From assembly GCA_028288625.1 (NCBI GenBank), contig JAQBNI010000057.1, positions 1 to 56,469 of the forward strand: 56,469 nucleotides of DNA, read 5' to 3'. Of this stretch, positions 1,432 to 16,904 are shown piece by piece. Within the stretch, counting starts at the first letter, position 1. The number at the start of each line of letters is the position of its first letter. This stretch comes from Bacteroidota bacterium. GTDB lineage: Bacteria; Bacteroidota; Bacteroidia; Chitinophagales; JADIYW01. Under the pieces are notes generated by a model. That model made no database searches. It was not told where the DNA came from and was given only the letters and a program-made list of their open reading frames with translations. Position numbers and translations under genes: made by a program.

Positions 1432-1506
1432 CGGGGCGTAGTTCAGCCCGGTTAGAATGCCTGGTTTGGGACCAGGAGGTCGTTGGTTCGAATCCAGCCG
1501 CCCCGA
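1432..1506 (+). tRNA. tRNA-Pro (anticodon TGG), integration target
   Basis: Acceptor CGGGGCG pairs with CGCCCCG (1499-1505), discriminator A, then CA. The anticodon stem-loop is CCTGG-TTTGGGA-CCAGG, giving anticodon TGG; the T-arm is GTTGG-TTCGAAT-CCAGC. The 3' part of the gene is repeated exactly at 15981-16014, showing that this gene is the integration site of the adjacent element. Crossover inside the repeat leaves the tRNA intact. Confidence 0.96.
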
Positions 1507-1511
1507 CAAAA
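1478..1511 (+). repeat. attL-type core repeat (3' end of tRNA-Pro)
   Basis: The 34 bp starting GGTCGTTGGTTCG and ending CCCCGACAAAA are identical to 15981-16014 in direct orientation, with the flanking bases different on both sides (A versus C before, G versus C after). The repeat runs from the variable loop through the T-arm and acceptor into four downstream A residues. An identical tRNA 3' end at each boundary with an integrase beside one of them is the standard mark of site-specific integration. Confidence 0.93.
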
Positions 1512-1513
1512 GA

Positions 1514-1545
1514 AAAGCACTTCAATTATTGAGGTGCTTTTTTTA
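1514..1545 (+). terminator. Rho-independent terminator after tRNA-Pro, supplied by the element
   Basis: AAAGCAC-TTCAA pairs with TTGAG-GTGCTTT around a three-base loop, followed by a T run. It lies just inside the left end of the integrated element, so the tRNA transcript now ends on element DNA. The other boundary has a different terminator at 16019-16049, probably the original one. Confidence 0.8.
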
Positions 1546-1686: not shown

Positions 1687-2904
1687 ATGAAAACCAATGC
1701 CTTAGGTTTCTCATTCTATTTGAGAATAGATAAACAAAACGCAAAAGGTGAATCTTTAATTTTTGCTAAAATCAGATTAAACTCTCAAAAAGCTGAAATT
1801 TCTACTAAAAGGTATATCCATCCCAGATATTGGGATAAGAAAAAATATATTGCTAAGAAACCTTTCCAATTCTGCAAAGAGCTTAATGAGCACCTACAAG
1901 TGGTTAAAAATAAGCTGTATGCTGCTTATACTCAACTCCTTCAATCAAATAAATCCATATCCGTACAAAATATAAAGGATTTGTATTTGGGAAAAGGAAA
2001 AATAGATGTGGTTACAATGGTACAGCTTTCTACTTTGCACATTAACGAAATGGAGCAGTTCTTAGGAAAAAGCAGTTTTCGAGGAAATTACAAGAATTAT
2101 AAGACTACTCATAAATACATCTTAGAGTTTATTCCTTTAGCATTTAAAAAGAAAGATTTGCCTTTGGAAGAGATTAATTACTCTTTTATCAAACAATATG
2201 AATACTTCTTGCAAACTGAAAAGGATTGCACTCAAAATGGCATTATGAAGCAAATGCAAAGACTTAGAAAGGTGTTCAACTGGGGAATCAGAAATGAGTA
2301 CTTGACAGAAAATCCACTAAGAAGTTATAAAATTTCCTTTAAGAAATATGATAGGGGATACTTGAAGATGGAGGAAATCGCCAAATTAGAGAATCTTTCA
2401 GGATTATCTAAGAAATTGCAGTACACTCAAGATTTTTTCATTTTTCAGTTATATACAGGTTTGGCTTATTCTGATGTCATAGATTTGAAGGTTAAGGATA
2501 TTGTATCGGGTATAGATAATACACCTTGGATTATTAAAAACAGGGTAAAGACAAATGTTAAAATTACCATTCCACTTCTGCCTAAAAGTATATATATTAT
2601 CTCGAAGTATTCAGATTTATCCATGCCAGACAAGAATATCTTCCCAAGGATCAGTAATCAGAAGATCAATCAGAATTTAAAAGAATTAGGGGAGATTGCG
2701 GGAGTATTAACACGACTTTCTACGCATTTAGCTAGACATTCAGCGGCAACTACGATTTGGTTAAGCAATGGTGTCTCTATAGAAGTTGTTTCCAAAATGC
2801 TTGGTCATACAAAAATCTCAACTACTCAAATTTATGGTAGAATTGTAGAAGAAAAGATAGCTGAGGAAATGAAAGAATTAAAGCAGAAATTGAGAGGGGA
2901 GTAA
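1687..2904 (+). CDS. Tyrosine recombinase / phage-type integrase
   Basis: Catalyses integration and excision of the island at tRNA-Pro. The 405 residues fit the Bacteroidota integrase layout: N-terminal arm-type DNA-binding domain (about 1-100, including STKRYIHPRYWD), SAM-like core-binding domain (about 110-215), and C-terminal catalytic domain. Catalytic residues visible: H347 and R350 in HLARHS, H374 in LGHTKISTT, nucleophile Y383 in QIYGR. The first catalytic arginine is not at its usual place: YTGLAYSD has Ala there. The same substitution is common in Bacteroidota integrases, and IntDOT also lacks this Arg. The ATG at 1687 lies 176 bp inside the left core repeat and the gene points into the island. 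Confidence 0.93.
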   Translation: MKTNALGFSFYLRIDKQNAKGESLIFAKIRLNSQKAEISTKRYIHPRYWDKKKYIAKKPFQFCKELNEHLQVVKNKLYAAYTQLLQSNKSISVQNIKDLYLGKGKIDVVTMVQLSTLHINEMEQFLGKSSFRGNYKNYKTTHKYILEFIPLAFKKKDLPLEEINYSFIKQYEYFLQTEKDCTQNGIMKQMQRLRKVFNWGIRNEYLTENPLRSYKISFKKYDRGYLKMEEIAKLENLSGLSKKLQYTQDFFIFQLYTGLAYSDVIDLKVKDIVSGIDNTPWIIKNRVKTNVKITIPLLPKSIYIISKYSDLSMPDKNIFPRISNQKINQNLKELGEIAGVLTRLSTHLARHSAATTIWLSNGVSIEVVSKMLGHTKISTTQIYGRIVEEKIAEEMKELKQKLRGE

Positions 2905-5461: not shown

Positions 5462-6505
5462 ATGAAACAAGATCTAACAATACAAATAATTGAGGATTAT
5501 CCTCAGAACGCAGGAGTAAATTCAAATTCTCTTATTTCTCTCTCTAGAGAGGCAAATATTCTGACTCCTGCCCTGAAAGCTCCAGTTGCTTCAAATCACT
5601 TTATTGAAGCAAATACAAAGGATGTGGAACTTATGCATTTAAAGAAAGATTGCGTCATTCCCAATTTTTCTAAAGACAATGAGTCTACAATTTCACATCA
5701 GGAGTTTATTGAAACTTTATTATTCAGTGTTCAAACTGTTTTCCCAACTGAACAAATCACACAGCCAATTATAAGAGTGAGCCATGAAATTAAGGGGCGA
5801 ATACCAGAGGCAATAGGCAAACCTGCTAATGAATTAGAGGAGTATGAAAAAACAATTTATTATGAACGGATGGCATTTGCAATTTCAATCTCTTCAATTG
5901 TGGAAAAAGTTGAAGAAAGCAATCTCGTTTTAACTGTAGGAGGTGTAAGGGCATATAACCACGAGAATCTGTATGGTAAGAAAAGCTTTGAAAAATTTAA
6001 AATCTTTATTGGCTTTCAGAATACAATTTGTACAAATCTTTGTATTTCCACAGATGGATATTGTGCTGAAATAAAAGCAACCAACGTTGAAGAATTGAAG
6101 ATGAAAATATTAGACTGTTTTCATTCTTACAAAATGAATTCCGATTTAGAACTTTTGAATAATATGGGCAAATATGAATTGACAGAACATCAATTTGCAC
6201 AACTAATTGGCAAGTCACGATTGTATCATTATTTACCAGAAGGAGTTAAAAAACAAATCCCATGTCTGGACTTTAATGACAGCCAGTTAAGTTTAATTGT
6301 AAGAACTTACTATCAGGATAAGAATTTTTGCAAATACTCTGATGGAAGCATTAGCCTTTGGAATTTGTACAATCTGTTTACAGGGGCTAATAAAACTAGC
6401 TATATTGACAGCTTCTTACAAAGGTCTGTTAACGCTACACAATTTATTCACGGTATCTCAGAAGCTTTACAAGGTAATAGCAATTACCATTGGTTTTTGA
6501 GTTAA
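5462..6505 (+). CDS. DUF3871 family protein
   Basis: 347 residues matching my memory of DUF3871, a family of unknown function found on Bacteroidota mobile elements. Recognisable stretches: SHEIKGRIPEAIGKPANEL, KTIYYERMAFAISI, LTVGGVRAYNHENLYGKK, FKIFIGFQNTICTNLCISTDG, LTEHQFAQLIGKSRLYHYLP and LWNLYNLFTGANKTSYIDSF. It has no signal peptide. The variable N-terminal 80 residues look disordered. Its presence supports the mobile origin of the region, and the neighbouring primase-helicase suggests a DNA-maintenance role, which is unproven. ATG at 5462; the gene ends at a hairpin (6512-6545). Confidence 0.85.
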   Translation: MKQDLTIQIIEDYPQNAGVNSNSLISLSREANILTPALKAPVASNHFIEANTKDVELMHLKKDCVIPNFSKDNESTISHQEFIETLLFSVQTVFPTEQITQPIIRVSHEIKGRIPEAIGKPANELEEYEKTIYYERMAFAISISSIVEKVEESNLVLTVGGVRAYNHENLYGKKSFEKFKIFIGFQNTICTNLCISTDGYCAEIKATNVEELKMKILDCFHSYKMNSDLELLNNMGKYELTEHQFAQLIGKSRLYHYLPEGVKKQIPCLDFNDSQLSLIVRTYYQDKNFCKYSDGSISLWNLYNLFTGANKTSYIDSFLQRSVNATQFIHGISEALQGNSNYHWFLS

Positions 6506-6548: not shown

Positions 6549-9500
6549 TTACCCTTCATTATTTTGGTTATAGAGCCACTGTTTAGTTTCTTCCGTGATT
6601 TGGAAATTTAAATATTCAATAATTGGCTTTAAAATTAATTGCATTGCAGCAGGGGCTTTATCTTCTATCATAGAAATCTTTAAATTATATTCTTCTATGT
6701 TTTTCTGTTCAGAAAAAATCAAAGCAACAAGTTTATATGCTATCTCTTTTAGAAATGGTATAATAATATTTTTTGAGACACTATTTCTTGTCATTCCATG
6801 TGTTTTTTGGATGAAAGGAAAAATTCCCAATATTTGATTTATAATTAAATCTCTATCATCGGATAAGTAAAGCAAACATAACAAGCACATTAATTGCTCG
6901 TGCCTTTTGTCATTTCCTGCAAATGTATTTGCTCTTTTTATTAATCGCTCTGTAGTAATTTCTTTTAATACAGTTTTGCGAGTGAGTTCTTCTACTAGCG
7001 TCCAAAGAATAGGATTTGAAGCTTTAATTTCATAATCCTTAACCGCATTAGTAAATGTTTCTAATCTTACTTCTTTATCAGATGAATCTCTTAAGTAATC
7101 TGTAAATAATACACACATCGCCGGAATAATGCAAGTTAGTATTGTTAGGTTTTCAGCCTCATCCCAATTCTTGCTTGGTTTAGATTCTAATATTTCCTCA
7201 AGTTTTATTTCCTCTCTTCTCGAAAATTTAGCTTTATCCTCCTTCTTGGTACAAGTACTAAAAGCTGCAAATAGTAAATAGGATTCCAATGCTTCTCTTA
7301 TTTTGAAACTGATTAAAGAAAATTGGCTACATGCGGAAGCTATCATAAGAAGAATATTTCCGTTTACATGCTTTCGAGCAGTGTCAAATGCTTTTAAAGA
7401 CCATTTATAAGATTTCTCATTATTCTTAATTCCATCCGCAAAAATAGCAAGCATGCCATAAATTAAAGCATCTTGAAACTGGTCATATAATTCTGATAAG
7501 TTTGATTTATTTATTATGAAATGTCCAATTTTTGGTTTAAAATAATCTACTCCATCCATCTTTGGAATTTCATCATAAGCAATTGTATTCCCTATATACG
7601 TTATTGTATGGCTCGAGATTTTAAATAACCTTTTCCATTCAGTAGTGGGATCATTGCCTTTCGAATCAAATAATCTTATAACAATTTCTTCAAATATCTC
7701 AAAAGACTTTTCTAAATCATTATTAATCCAATAAGCTAAACCTAGTTCCCCTAGTACCATTATATAGTTTAGATCGGATAATTCCTTATTGGTGTCAACA
7801 AAAATTTTTGCTTCAATACAATATTCTAAAGCTTTTGCTTTGTTTGTATCAGATAGAATCGAGCTTGCATAAATTAAAGTATCCAATAAATTTAATTGGT
7901 CAGTTGGCTTTAAATCTATTGCGTGTTGTAGCCACTTTAAACTTTCGGGATTCTGTTTATGGAAAAATAGTTTCCCTATATTTTCATAAAGAAGATATTT
8001 GGCAGTATTAGTATTCAGGACTAATGATTTTTCTATAGTAAGATTTAAGGCTTTGTCAATATCATTTTTGTACTGAAATGTACAACTAATAATCTCTTTT
8101 AATACAATTGCAGCAAGGGTAAAAAATTTCCGCTCCTCAAAAAAAGTATATAACACATATAAGGAATTGATGACATCATCCCACTTTCTATTCTTTTTTT
8201 CAAGTTTATACTCTTCATCTACTAGTTTAGAAGCCAAAACTGTAATAGCGGTTTCTGCATTCTTATCATCAAAAAAGTTTGTTTTAAATATATCTTCAGA
8301 ATGCGTTATATTTTCCAACCATAATCTAATATCTATTTCTGTGTTTATTTTAAGAATTGGAACCCAAAGAACTTTAATATATATATGGGCACCTTCCCTA
8401 AAACGTGCATTATATGGTTCTTCTAGATTCTCAACTGCTAATAATAAATCTCGATAAAATTTCCAAAAGTCTTGTAATTCTGGTTCGTTATAAAAGAAAA
8501 GAAGAGTTGCGTATAATGCAAGTCTTTCAATATTTTTTACCCCATCAGCCTGTGAAAAATTTTTCAATTGATTTTTATAAAAGCTTGTATCTTCTCCTAA
8601 TGAATGAAATAAACGAACTTGCTCACTTCTTATAGAAATCTTTTGCATCATATGCATTCCTTCAGGAAGATTGATACCAGACCAATAATAAAGATATCCC
8701 CATTCTTTTATTGTTAAAATTTCTTGTTTGGTTCTGGCAGATCTATAAACAAGTGATAAAATTATTCCTGCTTGATCATAATCTTGAGCTGAAATAAATT
8801 CAGTAATTGCTCGAGAAGCTTTAACCTGATCAAGTTGTTTGCTTTCTATTATGGTGTTGGCAATTGCTAAATGCGTGTTTTTAATAACTACATCAGTTAG
8901 ATTATTTTTTCCAATGTCTTTTATTAATGGAGAGATTTGGAATGTATCATTTGAAAATCCTTGGATCCAAATATTTACTAATTGCTGTAGTTTTTCACTA
9001 TGGTGTAAGATCTTTTCATCAACTTGACATACATTTTTTACAATTTGTAAATCAAACTCCCAACTTATTAAGCTAAGCCTATATAGTAATTCTCGAAGAG
9101 CGGGGTCATATAAATAAGTGGTAATAGATAATTGGGCATCGGAAAGTATATTATTAGTAAACTCTTTCTTAAGTAAAATATCGATAACATCTGTAGAATT
9201 AGTTCCCCAATGTAAATTTTTTAAATGTTGAATCATTGCGGTGGTGAGCCTGGGGTTTCTTTCCGATAAGGATGTTATTAAACTAAGGTAATTTAAAATG
9301 TGTGAAGGAGCTCCACTGTTTAGCAGATACTCTATTGTTTCTTCGTCTGTAAATTGTAAATCTCCATATTCAAATAAAATATCAGTCTCTATTGAGCTTT
9401 TAATATTTTCTGGAATAGTATAATTAGAAGTAGTTAATAGCTTAATTGAATATTTAGAAAACGCATTGGCAAGTAAGATTAGTGTTTCAGAAAATAAAGT

Positions 9501-10799
9501 GGGATTATTTACTCTAGGAATATCATTTAAAATAATTAATGAGTTTTTTGGCAAGAGTGATGCAACTTTTGTAACCCACATTTCCTTGTTATGTAAAACA
9601 GTTTCACTGGAAATCAATTTTAAAAACTCTAGAAAAATTGCATATGATAAATGCTCATTAGAATTATAGGACCTTAAGTCTAACCACCATTTTTGTTCAA
9701 ATTTATTAGATACGAGAGCAGCAAGTTGTGTTTTGCCTGATCCATTTATACCACATAGAGAAATCCAAGTAATATCTTTAAATCTTTCTAAAATTAAATT
9801 CACTTTCTTGTCTCTTTCCGATCCATTAACTATTTGTGAAGGATGGCTGATTGAAAAGTTTTTTAAATGATATTCAAATACAGTATCTGAAGGTAATTGC
9901 GTTTCTATTTTTTGAGTTAATGCCAATAAGGAAGATGCATTGTTGGTAATATCACTTTCTAACTTTAATAGTTTAATGTGGATATTGTCTGTAAATTGTT
10001 TTAAAAGATTTAGTAATAGTTGATCTGACTGTGACACTTGCTTTTTAATACAATTATTCAAATCTGCAAGAGCTAATTGTTTAGTCTCTTTATGGGTCAA
10101 TAGTTTGAATACATAAAGAAACAATTTTGAATATATCTGTTCCGAATCTTTTTTTTCTACTTTAAATTTGCTTAATAGAGCTTGTTTAATTGTTTCATTA
10201 ATTTGAGTCGCATCACCCTTATTTATACTCCAATTAAAATTGAAAATAAATTCTTTAAAACTTTCTGGCGAAGAGTCTTTAAGGTAATTGCTAAATAAAA
10301 GCCAGTTATTTGTTTGGGCATCCTTCCTACTAATAAATTTATTGCATGTATTTTTTAGGTGATCTTTAATAAGAATAAGTCTATTATCATTAACATCGAT
10401 GTTCTCCGTTTCACAGAGCTTGTTCCATACATCAATCCCTGCTTCTCCACTTATAAAAATTGCAGGTCTTTCTATTCCGTAAGATGTATTTGTTATGAAT
10501 CGAAATATTATTTTAGTATTTGGGTTATTTGTTCTGTGAAGAAAGTAATTTAGAATAGTCTCTAACGATTTCTCATTGTTTAATGTGATGTTGTTTTCAA
10601 GGTATTTAACTTGTTCAAGTTCTCGAATATCAAATTCAGTAATTTTGTCGTTTATGATGTCTATATCTTCACCCTTTTCTAATTCTAATATTTCATTATT
10701 AGCTAAATTTATCCATTTTAGAATAGTGTAATCCACCTGATATACATATCCTCGAATCACATACCAAGCATCTCTATTCGCAATTTCCTTAAAATCCAT
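6549..10799 (-). CDS. Avs-like STAND NTPase with N-terminal Cap4/DUF4297-like nuclease and C-terminal TPR-like region
   Basis: 1416 residues from the ATG at 10799. Residues 1-120 resemble Cap4/DUF4297-type dsDNA nucleases: RGYVYQVDYTILKWI, then acidic ELEKGEDIDII (39-49) and QVKY (63-66), the usual PD-(D/E)xK-like signature in that family. A STAND-type P-loop domain follows, with ISLCGINGSGKTQLA (Walker A at 350-357), Walker B-like LIILNDIPRV (421-430, Asn-Asp at the acidic pair) and sensor-like LLTTSNY (about 454-460). Residues from about 650 to the end are alpha-helical with TPR-like repeats. This nuclease-NTPase-sensor order is that of antiviral STAND (Avs) proteins, where the C-terminus recognises a phage protein and the N-terminus cleaves DNA. 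Function and trigger are inferred. The start overlaps the stop of the SMEK gene by one base (TGATG), so translation is probably coupled. Confidence 0.72.
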   Translation of the reverse strand: MDFKEIANRDAWYVIRGYVYQVDYTILKWINLANNEILELEKGEDIDIINDKITEFDIRELEQVKYLENNITLNNEKSLETILNYFLHRTNNPNTKIIFRFITNTSYGIERPAIFISGEAGIDVWNKLCETENIDVNDNRLILIKDHLKNTCNKFISRKDAQTNNWLLFSNYLKDSSPESFKEFIFNFNWSINKGDATQINETIKQALLSKFKVEKKDSEQIYSKLFLYVFKLLTHKETKQLALADLNNCIKKQVSQSDQLLLNLLKQFTDNIHIKLLKLESDITNNASSLLALTQKIETQLPSDTVFEYHLKNFSISHPSQIVNGSERDKKVNLILERFKDITWISLCGINGSGKTQLAALVSNKFEQKWWLDLRSYNSNEHLSYAIFLEFLKLISSETVLHNKEMWVTKVASLLPKNSLIILNDIPRVNNPTLFSETLILLANAFSKYSIKLLTTSNYTIPENIKSSIETDILFEYGDLQFTDEETIEYLLNSGAPSHILNYLSLITSLSERNPRLTTAMIQHLKNLHWGTNSTDVIDILLKKEFTNNILSDAQLSITTYLYDPALRELLYRLSLISWEFDLQIVKNVCQVDEKILHHSEKLQQLVNIWIQGFSNDTFQISPLIKDIGKNNLTDVVIKNTHLAIANTIIESKQLDQVKASRAITEFISAQDYDQAGIILSLVYRSARTKQEILTIKEWGYLYYWSGINLPEGMHMMQKISIRSEQVRLFHSLGEDTSFYKNQLKNFSQADGVKNIERLALYATLLFFYNEPELQDFWKFYRDLLLAVENLEEPYNARFREGAHIYIKVLWVPILKINTEIDIRLWLENITHSEDIFKTNFFDDKNAETAITVLASKLVDEEYKLEKKNRKWDDVINSLYVLYTFFEERKFFTLAAIVLKEIISCTFQYKNDIDKALNLTIEKSLVLNTNTAKYLLYENIGKLFFHKQNPESLKWLQHAIDLKPTDQLNLLDTLIYASSILSDTNKAKALEYCIEAKIFVDTNKELSDLNYIMVLGELGLAYWINNDLEKSFEIFEEIVIRLFDSKGNDPTTEWKRLFKISSHTITYIGNTIAYDEIPKMDGVDYFKPKIGHFIINKSNLSELYDQFQDALIYGMLAIFADGIKNNEKSYKWSLKAFDTARKHVNGNILLMIASACSQFSLISFKIREALESYLLFAAFSTCTKKEDKAKFSRREEIKLEEILESKPSKNWDEAENLTILTCIIPAMCVLFTDYLRDSSDKEVRLETFTNAVKDYEIKASNPILWTLVEELTRKTVLKEITTERLIKRANTFAGNDKRHEQLMCLLCLLYLSDDRDLIINQILGIFPFIQKTHGMTRNSVSKNIIIPFLKEIAYKLVALIFSEQKNIEEYNLKISMIEDKAPAAMQLILKPIIEYLNFQITEETKQWLYNQNNEG

Positions 10800-13516
10800 C
10801 AAGCTAAGTATTTAATAAAAATTTTTGCTAAACCCTCAATATATTTTTCTTCAAGGGCTTCTTTTACCTTATTAATGAGAATTGGGTGCTTTTTAAATGT
10901 TAAGTAATATGTTTCGGAAGGGTATTCCATTATCCAGTAGGGATTGAACTTATTGTAGTCGAATGTATCTAAATTTAAAAGCCATTCATAATAGGGAACG
11001 TTGTTGTGAAGTGAACTTATCTCTACAGTACTAAGTGTAACATTATAACTATAGATTAATCTAATAAAATGATTCAAAATAAAGTTTTGATCTTGTTTGT
11101 CATCCTTACTAAAAATGTATCCTTTAGTGTGCCAAAAGTTTTGAATTAGACTCATATACTGATTAAAGTATTGTTCATAATTGATTATTTCGAATAAAAC
11201 CGAGTCATAGTATAAATCATGTTCAAAATTTTCGTTTAATCTTTTAAGAATACCTGCTCTAATTTTTTCTTTGTAGTCAAGAGGAGCAATTCTGTGAAAA
11301 TATAACAGATTGTCTTCTTTAAGGATTCTCTTATTAGTGGAAAGACTATCTATTAGGAGATCGATATTTTTTAAAATTCCCTCACTTGTTATTTCATAGT
11401 TTTTCTGTTGCAACCAATAAGTGCAATGCTGAAACAATGTGAAATTGTTTTTTAATTGTTCTTTATTTAAGCTTAAATTTAATATCTGCTCCAGATTTTT
11501 AATATTGATTTGTTCACCCTTAAACTTTAATAACTCATTTACATAATTTATGGTTCTAGAGTTTAGTGTTGATGATTTCAACAGTTGCTCTATTACATTT
11601 GAAAGAATTTGGTTCAATTCATTTGTAGATATATTTAATCGAGAAAGTATTAGGATCTGATTTGAAACTAATTTGTTTGTTTTATCTCTTAGGTAATAAA
11701 TCTGAGATTGGGAAATCTGCTCATTTATCAAATCTTCTAAAATATTGAATGAAGTAAAAAAATTCTTCATTTTATTAAATACCTCCACATTATTACCATG
11801 TGATGGAGGAGATAGCTTTAGTTCTTTTAAGTTATAGCTTTCAAGTATTTTAAGGATTTTTTCAGGTTCACCAAACTTAATTATTAATCTTAAAATGTAT
11901 TCATTGAAGAATTCTTCTTTAGAAGAATCTTCATTTGAAATGCTATAAAGAGCTACGATTCCTTCAAATCCTTTCTGAATGACTGTTGTAAATTCTAAGA
12001 ATATATCATAAATAATTAAGTTCCCATCAATAAACAAAGATAATTGAGCTACTGTATCAAGGAGTTCATTGAGGCTGTTATTGTTTGACCAATTCCCATT
12101 TTGATCATTAATATAAATCTCTCTACATTCATCTATCAATTTTAATATTTTCCAAATAGTCTTATCAATAAATTTAGAATCAGCAATCCAGTCTAAGACG
12201 GTGCATATTTCAGGTTCTATATTTTGGATGGATTTTAAATGATGTAATATCTTATCTAGATCAATGTCATTTAATCCCTCCTTTATTTTTTCCCACTCCT
12301 TTCCATAGCCATACCGTTTAATAATAGTGTTTAATCTAAACAAGTTATGTTCGCAAATAAAATAGCTTACATATTTTTTTTCGGCTTTAAATTTTTCACG
12401 CAGCTCTTTATATAAAAGTATTGAGGTCTTAAAATTACCATATTGGTAATGCATGTATGCATTTTTTAATGCGTCATAGTTTTCTTGATTTTTATTTGTG
12501 CCTATTAGTTTATTTATTGATTGTGTAAAATCGAATCTTTCAAAAGTGCATCTCACACAATTGCATTGTTCTCGACTGAATAAGGTATGTATACAAAGTC
12601 TCTCTTCATTAGAATTAAATAAGTAAAGATGGTGAAATAGGTTATGACCAAAAAAATCAACTATTTTTTTATTTGTTTCATCTAGTTCAGAAATATCTTT
12701 TTTTATTAATTCTTTAAAATAATTATATAAGTCTTTATTATCAGTATATAATGAAAAGTCAGAATAATGAGATTTAGAATTATTGGTTTTAGAAAGTGGA
12801 TACAACTTGGATAAAAATGTATGTGGGATGACCTTTAATTCTTCAAACTTGTTGAACAAATAATTGAATGCATCTTTGATGTTAGATATTTCTTGTAACT
12901 TTTTATTTAGAGATTGAATAAAAATTAAATCCTCAGACGAGATATCCTGATTAAACTTTAGTTTGGGATATTCCTTTCCCAAATATTCATGAATATTAAA
13001 GAGTGAGTCAATGTCTAAATGATTGCCGATTTCATTTACTAGTGTACTAATATTCCATATGTGAGATGATTCGAATTTAAAATTACCAAGATCTTTATTG
13101 TTTTTGTTGCTTATTTCTTTTAAATACTCATTAAGATCCGTAGTCTTGAGCGATGATTTATATTCGTCATCAATTATCAGTATATATAAGCGATCATAAT
13201 TTTTATAAAGTTCCTTCTTTATAAATTTTTCAAGTGTATTCTTGATTTTTAATGCGGATTTAGTAGATGTTATCTGAAAAGCTATTTTGCTATTTTGACA
13301 ACCCAAATCAATTGCTTCAGTATTTTTTTTATCAATTTCGAGTCTTTTGAAGGAAGCTTTCTCAGTAGTAAAAAGAGCATTCATAATTGGTATAAAAAGG
13401 ATTTCTGCATAAAGGTTTATATCATGGTAACCACTGTTACTTGCAAGTCTTATCTCTGTAGTAAACAGAGCAAAATAAGTTCTAATCTCAGTAATGTATT
13501 TTAAACCATCAGCCAT
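10799..13516 (-). CDS. SMEK-domain protein with zinc-knuckle-like motif and helical repeat tail
   Basis: 905 residues. The N-terminus (about 1-175) fits the SMEK domain found in bacterial conflict-type proteins: an initial helix TEIRTYFALFTTEIRLAS, then AIDLGCQNSKIAFQITSTKSALKI (about 68-91; written here as D70 and Q81-x-T83) and LYILIIDDEYK (about 109-119). The rest is helical, with a Cys cluster C308-x9-C318-x-C320-x2-C323 that could bind zinc, then a TPR-like AYMHYQYGNFKTSILLY. Nothing catalytic is obvious. It is the first gene of a two-gene operon and is joined to the STAND nuclease gene by a TGATG stop-start. It may sense infection, or help or restrain the partner; this is inference. ATG at 13516. 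Confidence 0.72.
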   Translation of the reverse strand: MADGLKYITEIRTYFALFTTEIRLASNSGYHDINLYAEILFIPIMNALFTTEKASFKRLEIDKKNTEAIDLGCQNSKIAFQITSTKSALKIKNTLEKFIKKELYKNYDRLYILIIDDEYKSSLKTTDLNEYLKEISNKNNKDLGNFKFESSHIWNISTLVNEIGNHLDIDSLFNIHEYLGKEYPKLKFNQDISSEDLIFIQSLNKKLQEISNIKDAFNYLFNKFEELKVIPHTFLSKLYPLSKTNNSKSHYSDFSLYTDNKDLYNYFKELIKKDISELDETNKKIVDFFGHNLFHHLYLFNSNEERLCIHTLFSREQCNCVRCTFERFDFTQSINKLIGTNKNQENYDALKNAYMHYQYGNFKTSILLYKELREKFKAEKKYVSYFICEHNLFRLNTIIKRYGYGKEWEKIKEGLNDIDLDKILHHLKSIQNIEPEICTVLDWIADSKFIDKTIWKILKLIDECREIYINDQNGNWSNNNSLNELLDTVAQLSLFIDGNLIIYDIFLEFTTVIQKGFEGIVALYSISNEDSSKEEFFNEYILRLIIKFGEPEKILKILESYNLKELKLSPPSHGNNVEVFNKMKNFFTSFNILEDLINEQISQSQIYYLRDKTNKLVSNQILILSRLNISTNELNQILSNVIEQLLKSSTLNSRTINYVNELLKFKGEQINIKNLEQILNLSLNKEQLKNNFTLFQHCTYWLQQKNYEITSEGILKNIDLLIDSLSTNKRILKEDNLLYFHRIAPLDYKEKIRAGILKRLNENFEHDLYYDSVLFEIINYEQYFNQYMSLIQNFWHTKGYIFSKDDKQDQNFILNHFIRLIYSYNVTLSTVEISSLHNNVPYYEWLLNLDTFDYNKFNPYWIMEYPSETYYLTFKKHPILINKVKEALEEKYIEGLAKIFIKYLA

Positions 13517-14884: not shown

Positions 14885-15112
14885 TTAAAATTCAAACAAT
14901 TCCTTAAGGTCAACATTCAATGCCTTACTTAATTTATTTAGAGTTCCTAAAGTCACATTTGTTCTTCCACCTTCTATTCTAGATATGCTAGTTTTTTCAA
15001 AATCACATATCGTGGCAATATCAAGTTGCGTGAAGCCCTTAGATTCCCTTAGTTCTTTTATTTTCTTCCCAAGCCTAATTTTTAGCTTCTCATCAGTCAT
15101 CAGGGTTGTCAT
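14885..15112 (-). CDS. XRE-family helix-turn-helix regulator
   Basis: A 75-residue HTH_3 protein: IRLGKKIKELRESKGFTQLDIATICDF then EKTSISRIEGGRTNVTLGTLNKLSKALNVDLKELF covers the whole five-helix fold. ATG at 15112 chosen; ATG 15100 (MTDEKLKI) is also possible, and the upstream TTG is less likely. Such small Cro/C1-like proteins control lysogeny-type switches or toxin-antitoxin operons; no toxin gene is adjacent. The region between it and the divergent secreted-TPR gene contains ACATATATGT palindromes next to both starts, consistent with self-repression and control of the neighbour. Confidence 0.88.
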   Translation of the reverse strand: MTTLMTDEKLKIRLGKKIKELRESKGFTQLDIATICDFEKTSISRIEGGRTNVTLGTLNKLSKALNVDLKELFEF

Positions 15113-15980: not shown

Positions 15981-16014
15981 GGTCGTTGGTTCGAATCCAG
16001 CCGCCCCGACAAAA
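15981..16014 (+). repeat. attR-type core repeat (partial tRNA-Pro copy)
   Basis: Exact 34-bp copy of 1478-1511. It contains the T-arm and 3' acceptor of tRNA-Pro but no D-arm or anticodon arm, so it is not a functional tRNA. It marks the right end of the island. Confidence 0.93.
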
Positions 16015-16018
16015 CAAG

Positions 16019-16802: not shown

Positions 16803-16834
16803 ACTAAGATAAATTATAAGGCATAAAGACTCAT

Positions 16835-16904
16835 CTTCCGACAGTAGCAGTTTGTAAAGCCGCCCGGCTTACTAAAAAAAGGTTCGCATAGCGAACCTTT
16901 TTTT
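16835..16904 (+). ncRNA. Two-hairpin RNA element, copy 2
   Basis: Same order as copy 1: CTTCCGACAGTAGCAGTTTG, hairpin AAGCC-GCCC-GGCTT, terminator GGTTCGC-ATA-GCGAACC plus T run. Here it could be the 3' UTR and terminator of the small ORF at 16638, and it also faces the end of the convergent dinB gene. Confidence 0.5.

What the first reader, a model, noticed from the sequence alone, without database searches (positions are those of the whole stretch)
6549..13516. Coupled SMEK protein + Cap4-like-nuclease/STAND/TPR protein: candidate undescribed two-gene defence system
The two genes cover almost half of the island. The downstream protein has the Avs layout (nuclease-like N-terminus with GEDID...QVK, P-loop GINGSGKT, long TPR-like sensor tail), but known Avs proteins act alone. 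Here the gene is joined by TGATG to a 905-residue SMEK protein with its own Cys cluster. A SMEK partner for an Avs-like nuclease would be a new arrangement. Family calls are from memory and motifs; activity is inferred.
Basis: partly seen in the sequence, partly recalled or inferred. Interest (0 to 1): 0.85.

Follow-up and report, generated by a model that had tools for sequence, protein, structure and literature searches.

The report
Nuclease-armed DSR2-type sensor beside Avs-like gene
A mobile island in a Bacteroidota genome carries two back-to-back predicted anti-phage genes that look like two independent single-gene systems; one is a version of the known phage-tail sensor DSR2 with its NAD-destroying domain replaced by a DNA-cutting domain, and it belongs to a family that swaps at least six kinds of attack domain on one conserved sensor.

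Summary
The two genes are real and overlap by TGATG inside a 14.5-kb island at tRNA-Pro (37-bp att repeats). The upstream protein does start with a SMEK (Mrr-like) nuclease domain. The 'two-gene system' is not supported: among 21 other genomes carrying the SMEK protein's C-terminal module and 13 other loci with relatives of the STAND protein, none carries both. The main new result is that residues ~204-905 of the SMEK protein are the DSR2 phage-sensor region: profile to PDB E=1e-9, hhalign 98%, AlphaFold model versus DSR2 Z~20, 602 residues aligned, next unrelated fold Z~10. In DSR2 this region senses the phage tail tube and switches on a SIR2 NADase; here SIR2 is replaced by a nuclease. Relatives put SIR2, SMEK, DUF4365, MmeI_N, PIN or another REase-like domain before the same sensor. 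Best reading: two independent one-protein abortive-infection nucleases stacked on a mobile element, one of them a new nuclease-armed variant of DSR2. Phage trigger and nuclease activity are inferred, not shown.

The parts
1478..1514 (+). left attachment repeat (3' end of tRNA-Pro)
   Evidence: 37-bp direct repeat, 97% identical to 15981-16017; tRNA-Pro at 1432-1507
15981..16017 (+). right attachment repeat, end of island
1687..2904 (+). tyrosine integrase of the island
   Evidence: Pfam Phage_integrase 2.3e-19, Arm-DNA-bind_5, Phage_int_SAM_5
10799..13516 (-). SMEK protein, 905 aa: nuclease effector plus DSR2-type sensor
12941..13516 (-). SMEK (Mrr-like nuclease) domain, residues 1-192
   Evidence: Pfam SMEK_N 2.7e-30; PDB 26bh_D, Mrr domain of Kordia Mrr-APAZ pAgo, 1.2e-15 over residues 8-117; E38, D70, Q81 and K90 invariant in 23 SMEK domain rows, T83 in 21
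10802..12907 (-). DSR2-type sensor region, residues 204-905
   Evidence: PDB profile hit to DSR2 420-1000, E=1.1e-9; hhalign to a DSR2 homologue 98.3%; VIA-align Z 21.5, 602 residues, model 204-905 on DSR2 298-1004
12548..12565 (-). Cys cluster CNCVRC, residues 318-323
   Evidence: alignment of 22 relatives, C-x-C-x2-C in most
10946..10963 (-). C-terminal motif FDYNKF, residues 852-857 (family FDYskFnpeW; DSR2 FDYKKFIPSW)
6549..10799 (-). STAND protein, 1416 aa: DUF4297/Cap4-like nuclease + NB-ARC-type ATPase + TPR-like tail
10110..10799 (-). DUF4297/Cap4-like nuclease domain, residues 1-230
   Evidence: PADLOC LmuA 1.6e-13 and DUF4297 4.1e-9; PDB DUF4297 8xav 2.5e-9 by profile; E41, E44, D45, Q63, K65 invariant in 10 sequences
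8850..9842 (-). STAND/NB-ARC ATPase, about residues 320-650, Walker A GINGSGKT at 9729-9752
   Evidence: Pfam NB-ARC 4.9e-5, 23.1 bits against a cut-off of 23.5; G355, K356, T357 invariant in 5 sequences
6552..8849 (-). TPR-like C-terminal tail (presumed sensor)
   Evidence: profile matches consensus TPR proteins at E=1.8e-4 over profile positions 898-1028
5462..6505 (+). DUF3871 gene of the island (not part of either system)
   Evidence: Pfam DUF3871 1.9e-129
14885..15112 (-). small XRE-like helix-turn-helix regulator of the island, 75 aa
   Evidence: read from sequence; family call by eye

Best explanation
The locus is two stacked, independent, single-protein anti-phage systems on a mobile island, co-transcribed through a TGATG overlap. 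The upstream gene is a DSR2-type sensor whose SIR2 NADase has been replaced by a SMEK (Mrr-like PD-(D/E)XK) nuclease. The C-terminal helical/HEAT cavity binds a newly made phage structural protein (in DSR2 it is the tail tube), and the change of shape releases the N-terminal nuclease, which degrades DNA and aborts infection. The downstream gene is an Avs-like protein: a TPR-like tail senses a phage protein, the STAND ATPase oligomerises, and the DUF4297/Cap4-like N-terminus cuts DNA. Shown here: the genes, domain homologies, conserved catalytic-type residues, the DSR2 sensor fold, effector swapping in the family, and absence of the pair elsewhere. Inferred: operon expression, nuclease activity, phage triggers, abortive outcome.
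For: SMEK-protein residues 204-905 match the DSR2 sensor by profile, by hhalign to a DSR2 homologue not in the profile, and by structure, with Z 17-21 for DSR2 entries against 10 or less for anything else. SMEK_N and Mrr-domain hits with invariant E38, D70, Q81 and K90. The same sensor carries PIN, DUF4365, MmeI_N, SMEK or SIR2_2, and one REase-like N-terminus by eye. 21 other genomes carry the sensor without the STAND gene. STAND relatives at 36-38% full-length identity sit next to unrelated genes. DUF4297/LmuA and DUF4297 structure hits for the STAND N-terminus. Island with integrase and att repeats. DSR2 mechanism from PMC10981675 and PMC11263360.
Against: No function was tested. DSR2 and the SMEK protein share only 10-13% identity in structure alignments, so the phage ligand may differ. 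The overlap could mean real cooperation in this lineage. The nuclease fold of the STAND N-terminus rests on profiles only; the single-sequence model failed (pLDDT 37). The SMEK motif is E...D...QxT...K rather than the classic D...ExK.
Confidence: 0.75

Rival explanations
1. A true two-component system: the SMEK/DSR2-type protein and the STAND protein form one complex or cascade and need each other.
For: TGATG overlap and same strand; both sit in one small island; similar AT-rich composition, GC3 0.22 and 0.25.
Against: No other genome has the pair among 21 with the sensor and 13 loci with STAND relatives; each protein already has its own effector and sensor parts.
Confidence: 0.08
2. The two genes are independent systems, but the SMEK protein uses the DSR2-type scaffold to sense something other than a phage tail tube (another phage structural protein, or another infection cue).
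For: Sensor identity to DSR2 is low (10-13%); relatives are diverse; part of the family carries a Cys cluster for which no counterpart was seen in the DSR2 homologue alignment.
Against: The fold is the same over the whole DSR2 sensor region, and the predicted loop 797-810 (lowest confidence in the sensor) falls about where DSR2's tail-tube-binding strand 904-907 lies.
Confidence: 0.35
3. A short-Argonaute (SPARDA-like) accessory protein, as the PADLOC hit suggests.
For: PADLOC PDLC02399 pAgo REase model, 8e-30.
Against: The hit covers only the SMEK domain (residues 6-211); none of the neighbouring proteins scanned matches an Argonaute; the rest of the protein is DSR2-like.
Confidence: 0.02

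Closest known systems
DSR2 (defence-associated sirtuin 2)
   Same: Whole C-terminal region (SMEK protein 204-905 on DSR2 298-1004), single protein, effector at the N-terminus, sensor at the C-terminus.
   Different: A SMEK/Mrr-like nuclease replaces the SIR2 NADase; no SIR2 domain; identity about 12%; ligand unknown.
SMEK/Mrr-APAZ proteins of short prokaryotic Argonautes
   Same: Same N-terminal nuclease domain (PMC10810196).
   Different: No APAZ and no Argonaute; a DSR2-type sensor instead.
Avs (AVAST) STAND nucleases, such as those with a Cap4-like N-terminus
   Same: The STAND protein has the order nuclease, STAND ATPase, TPR-like tail.
   Different: No PADLOC model matched the full protein and the profile found no Avs structure in the PDB; ligand unknown.
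Lamassu LmuA / DUF4297-HerA nucleases
   Same: N-terminal nuclease domain only.
   Different: No LmuB or HerA partner gene seen; fused to STAND and TPR parts.

Membership tests
DSR2 | C-terminal helical/HEAT sensor region (DSR2 299-1005) | tested here: met
   PDB profile 1.1e-9, hhalign 98.3%, Z 21.5 over 602 residues
DSR2 | N-terminal SIR2 NADase | tested here: not met
   N-terminus is SMEK_N; SIR2 occurs only in other family members L078 and L080
DSR2 | Activation by phage tail tube protein, inhibition by DSAD1 | not testable with these tools
   needs experiment; mechanism known for DSR2 (PMC10981675)
DSR2 | Head-to-head tetramer | not tested
   no complex prediction available
SMEK_N nuclease domain | Pfam/NCBIfam SMEK_N match above cut-off | tested here: met
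   105.5 bits against 27; 77 against 30
SMEK_N nuclease domain | Catalytic-type residues kept | tested here: met
   E38, D70, Q81, K90 invariant in 23 domain rows, some of them duplicates of one locus
Short pAgo (SPARDA-like) accessory protein | APAZ region and Argonaute partner | tested here: not met
   PADLOC hit limited to residues 6-211; no Argonaute among neighbours
Avs (AVAST) | Effector - STAND ATPase - TPR-like sensor in one protein | tested here: met
Avs (AVAST) | Sequence match to a named Avs type | tested here: inconclusive
   no PADLOC match and no Avs chain in the PDB profile search; the library lacks some families, for example a real DSR2 gets no Dsr2 hit
Avs (AVAST) | Sensing of terminase or portal | not testable with these tools
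   needs experiment
Lamassu | LmuA nuclease with an SMC-like LmuB partner | tested here: not met
   only the LmuA-like domain matches; the neighbour is the SMEK protein, not an SMC
DUF4297-HerA | HerA ATPase partner | tested here: not met
   no HerA among the neighbouring proteins scanned

The most novel reading that the evidence does not exclude
In this island the DSR2-type SMEK nuclease and the Avs-like STAND nuclease have become one system, with two sensors reading two phage proteins and two nucleases acting together.
Probability: 0.08. Interest if true: 0.75.

Novelty: new variant of a known kind. Interest (0 to 1): 0.6.

Why it matters
DSR2 is known as a single SIR2 system. Here the same sensor is found in Bacteroidota with six kinds of N-terminal effector, most of them nucleases, so DSR2 looks like one branch of a larger modular sensor family. 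It predicts that tail-tube (or related) sensing can trigger DNA or RNA cutting as well as NAD loss, and it gives named proteins on which to test whether ligand or effector is conserved. It also explains a set of proteins annotated only by their N-terminal domain (SMEK, DUF4365, 'MmeI', PIN).

Tried and rejected
Close-relative scans of viral contigs with each query gave no true relative, and phage records gave none. Single-sequence AlphaFold of the STAND N-terminus (residues 1-340) failed, pLDDT 37, and says nothing about the fold. The SMEK domain itself was poorly modelled in the full-length job, because the other rows carry other N-termini. Absence of PADLOC hits for the sensor is not evidence of novelty, since a true DSR2 homologue also gets no Dsr2 hit. 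A weak Pfam tRNA-synt_2 hit in the SMEK protein (5.5e-5, below cut-off) spans 257-878 and occurs in no relative: rejected as chance. Promoter scan no better than shuffles. A tree of 23 sensors needs at least 5 effector changes, but deep branches are weak, so the direction of swaps is open. Flank comparison in seven same-genus genomes shows the left flank and no island sequence within the stretch held, but not the right flank, so an empty site is not proven. No paper on DSR2-type sensors with nuclease effectors was found in the held library, which lacks most subscription journals and all bioRxiv preprints.

Full report
Observation. The two genes are present as described: a 905-aa frame at 10799-13516 and a 1416-aa frame at 6549-10799, both on the minus strand. 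The second most likely starts at ATG 10799, inside TGATG. They lie in an island bounded by a 37-bp repeat of the tRNA-Pro 3' end (1478-1514 and 15981-16017) with a tyrosine integrase and lower GC than its surroundings. In seven same-genus genomes the left flank is present and no island sequence was found within the stretch held.

The upstream protein. Residues 1-192 are a SMEK domain (Pfam 2.7e-30; PADLOC pAgo REase model 8e-30), matched to a solved Mrr domain of a Kordia Mrr-APAZ protein (1.2e-15). In 23 SMEK domain rows (a few are duplicates of one locus) E38, D70, Q81 and K90 are invariant and T83 nearly so. SMEK and DUF4365 are listed as nuclease effectors of short Argonautes (PMC10810196). 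The remaining 700 residues match no Pfam, NCBIfam or PADLOC family above its cut-off.

Relatives of that C-terminal part were found in 21 other Bacteroidota genomes or plasmids. Their N-termini differ: SMEK (window, L073, L077), DUF4365 (L037-L040, L047), PIN (L031, L042, L045, L046, L074-L076), MmeI_N (L032 second gene, L036, L044, L072), a REase-like domain by eye (L032 first gene) and SIR2 (L080, L078). A profile of the 22 C-terminal parts (A4) finds DSR2 in the PDB at E=1.1e-9 across DSR2 420-1000, with the shared end motif FDYxkFxPxW. A DSR2 homologue of Priestia megaterium (L083, phmmer about 1250 bits to DSR2), which was not in the profile, aligns by hhalign at 98.3% and E=1.2e-14. The AlphaFold model (sensor part pLDDT mostly 75-90) matches only DSR2 entries at high score: Foldseek E of 1e-9 to 3e-6 for 41 DSR2 chains, next unrelated 1e-3; VIA-align Z 17-21.5 over about 600 residues, model 204-905 on DSR2 298-1004, next unrelated Z 10.0. 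This is the full DSR2 region beyond SIR2: HTH, helix bundle, HEAT and C-terminal domain by the map in PMC11263360. In DSR2 it senses the phage tail tube and switches on the NADase (PMC10981675).

The downstream protein. The first 230 residues match LmuA (1.6e-13) and DUF4297 (4.1e-9) in PADLOC, and solved DUF4297 nucleases at 2.5e-9 by profile, with E41, E44, D45, Q63 and K65 invariant in 10 sequences. A STAND ATPase follows (NB-ARC 4.9e-5, just under its cut-off; P-loop invariant), then a tail with TPR similarity. Full-length relatives at 36-38% identity occur in three other genomes (G069, G467, G940), more distant ones in Deinococcus, Aulosira and Priestia plasmids and in G950, three of which show other or missing N-termini. 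Six further loci share the nuclease domain and STAND part at low identity. No Avs model or structure matched, so it works like an Avs protein on architecture but is not placed in a named type.

Is it a pair? With profiles of both proteins run over all fetched loci, only the window (and loci cut from it) holds both. STAND relatives neighbour an nSTAND3 gene (L014), SbcCD-like genes (L087, by eye) or unrelated genes (L070). Sensor relatives neighbour unrelated genes. The pair is therefore not a conserved unit in this sample, which covers 395 genomes of the phylum, 396 of the order, 199 of one genus, and an 84,980-species scan limited to one conserved sensor motif, so rare pairs could be missed.

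Verdict. Best explanation: two independent single-protein abortive-infection nucleases stacked on a mobile island. The notable part is the first: a DSR2-type sensor armed with a nuclease, one member of an effector-swapping family (at least 5 changes on a 23-sequence tree, deep branches weak). Fold and homology are shown; activity, ligand and abortive outcome are inferred. No description of nuclease-armed DSR2-type sensors was found in the held papers, but that library is partial.

Noticed in passing
L079:8972-12883, L081:5564-8830, L082:8402-11752, L034:4320-7277: SMEK domains fused in one protein to STAND/NACHT-type ATPases (SMEK_N plus NB-ARC, NACHT or nSTAND hits): Avs-like proteins with a SMEK effector, so SMEK is a general swap-in effector.
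   Followed up: partly
L080:7540-10560 and L078:4756-7404 (with 7410-8285): Bacteroidota SIR2 proteins with the same sensor, i.e. DSR2-like architecture that PADLOC calls only by its SIR2 part; L078 looks split in two frames.
   Followed up: partly
L032/L043:2117-7692: Two tandem sensor proteins with different effectors (REase-like and MmeI_N) in Flavobacterium tructae, 45 bp apart.
   Followed up: no
L037:6844-9435 and L039:6883-9402: An 840-860 aa gene of unknown kind, with hydrophobic segments near its C-terminus, overlaps the start of the DUF4365-type sensor gene in two genomes: possible real partner in that branch.
   Followed up: no
L014:12650-16303: An nSTAND3 protein with a REase-like N-terminus (by eye) stands 95 bp upstream of the STAND relative in G069.
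   Followed up: no
window:2972-4378: Island gene with a P-loop (GGTGKS) and no Pfam hit; looks by eye like a replication helicase, so the island may be a phage-satellite-like or mobilizable element.
   Followed up: no
G000:C119:37250-37540 (L029): A SMEK domain remnant with an internal TAG elsewhere in the same genome.
   Followed up: no
window:16450-16494 and 16834-16878: Two 45-nt direct repeats (84% identical) just outside the island.
   Followed up: no
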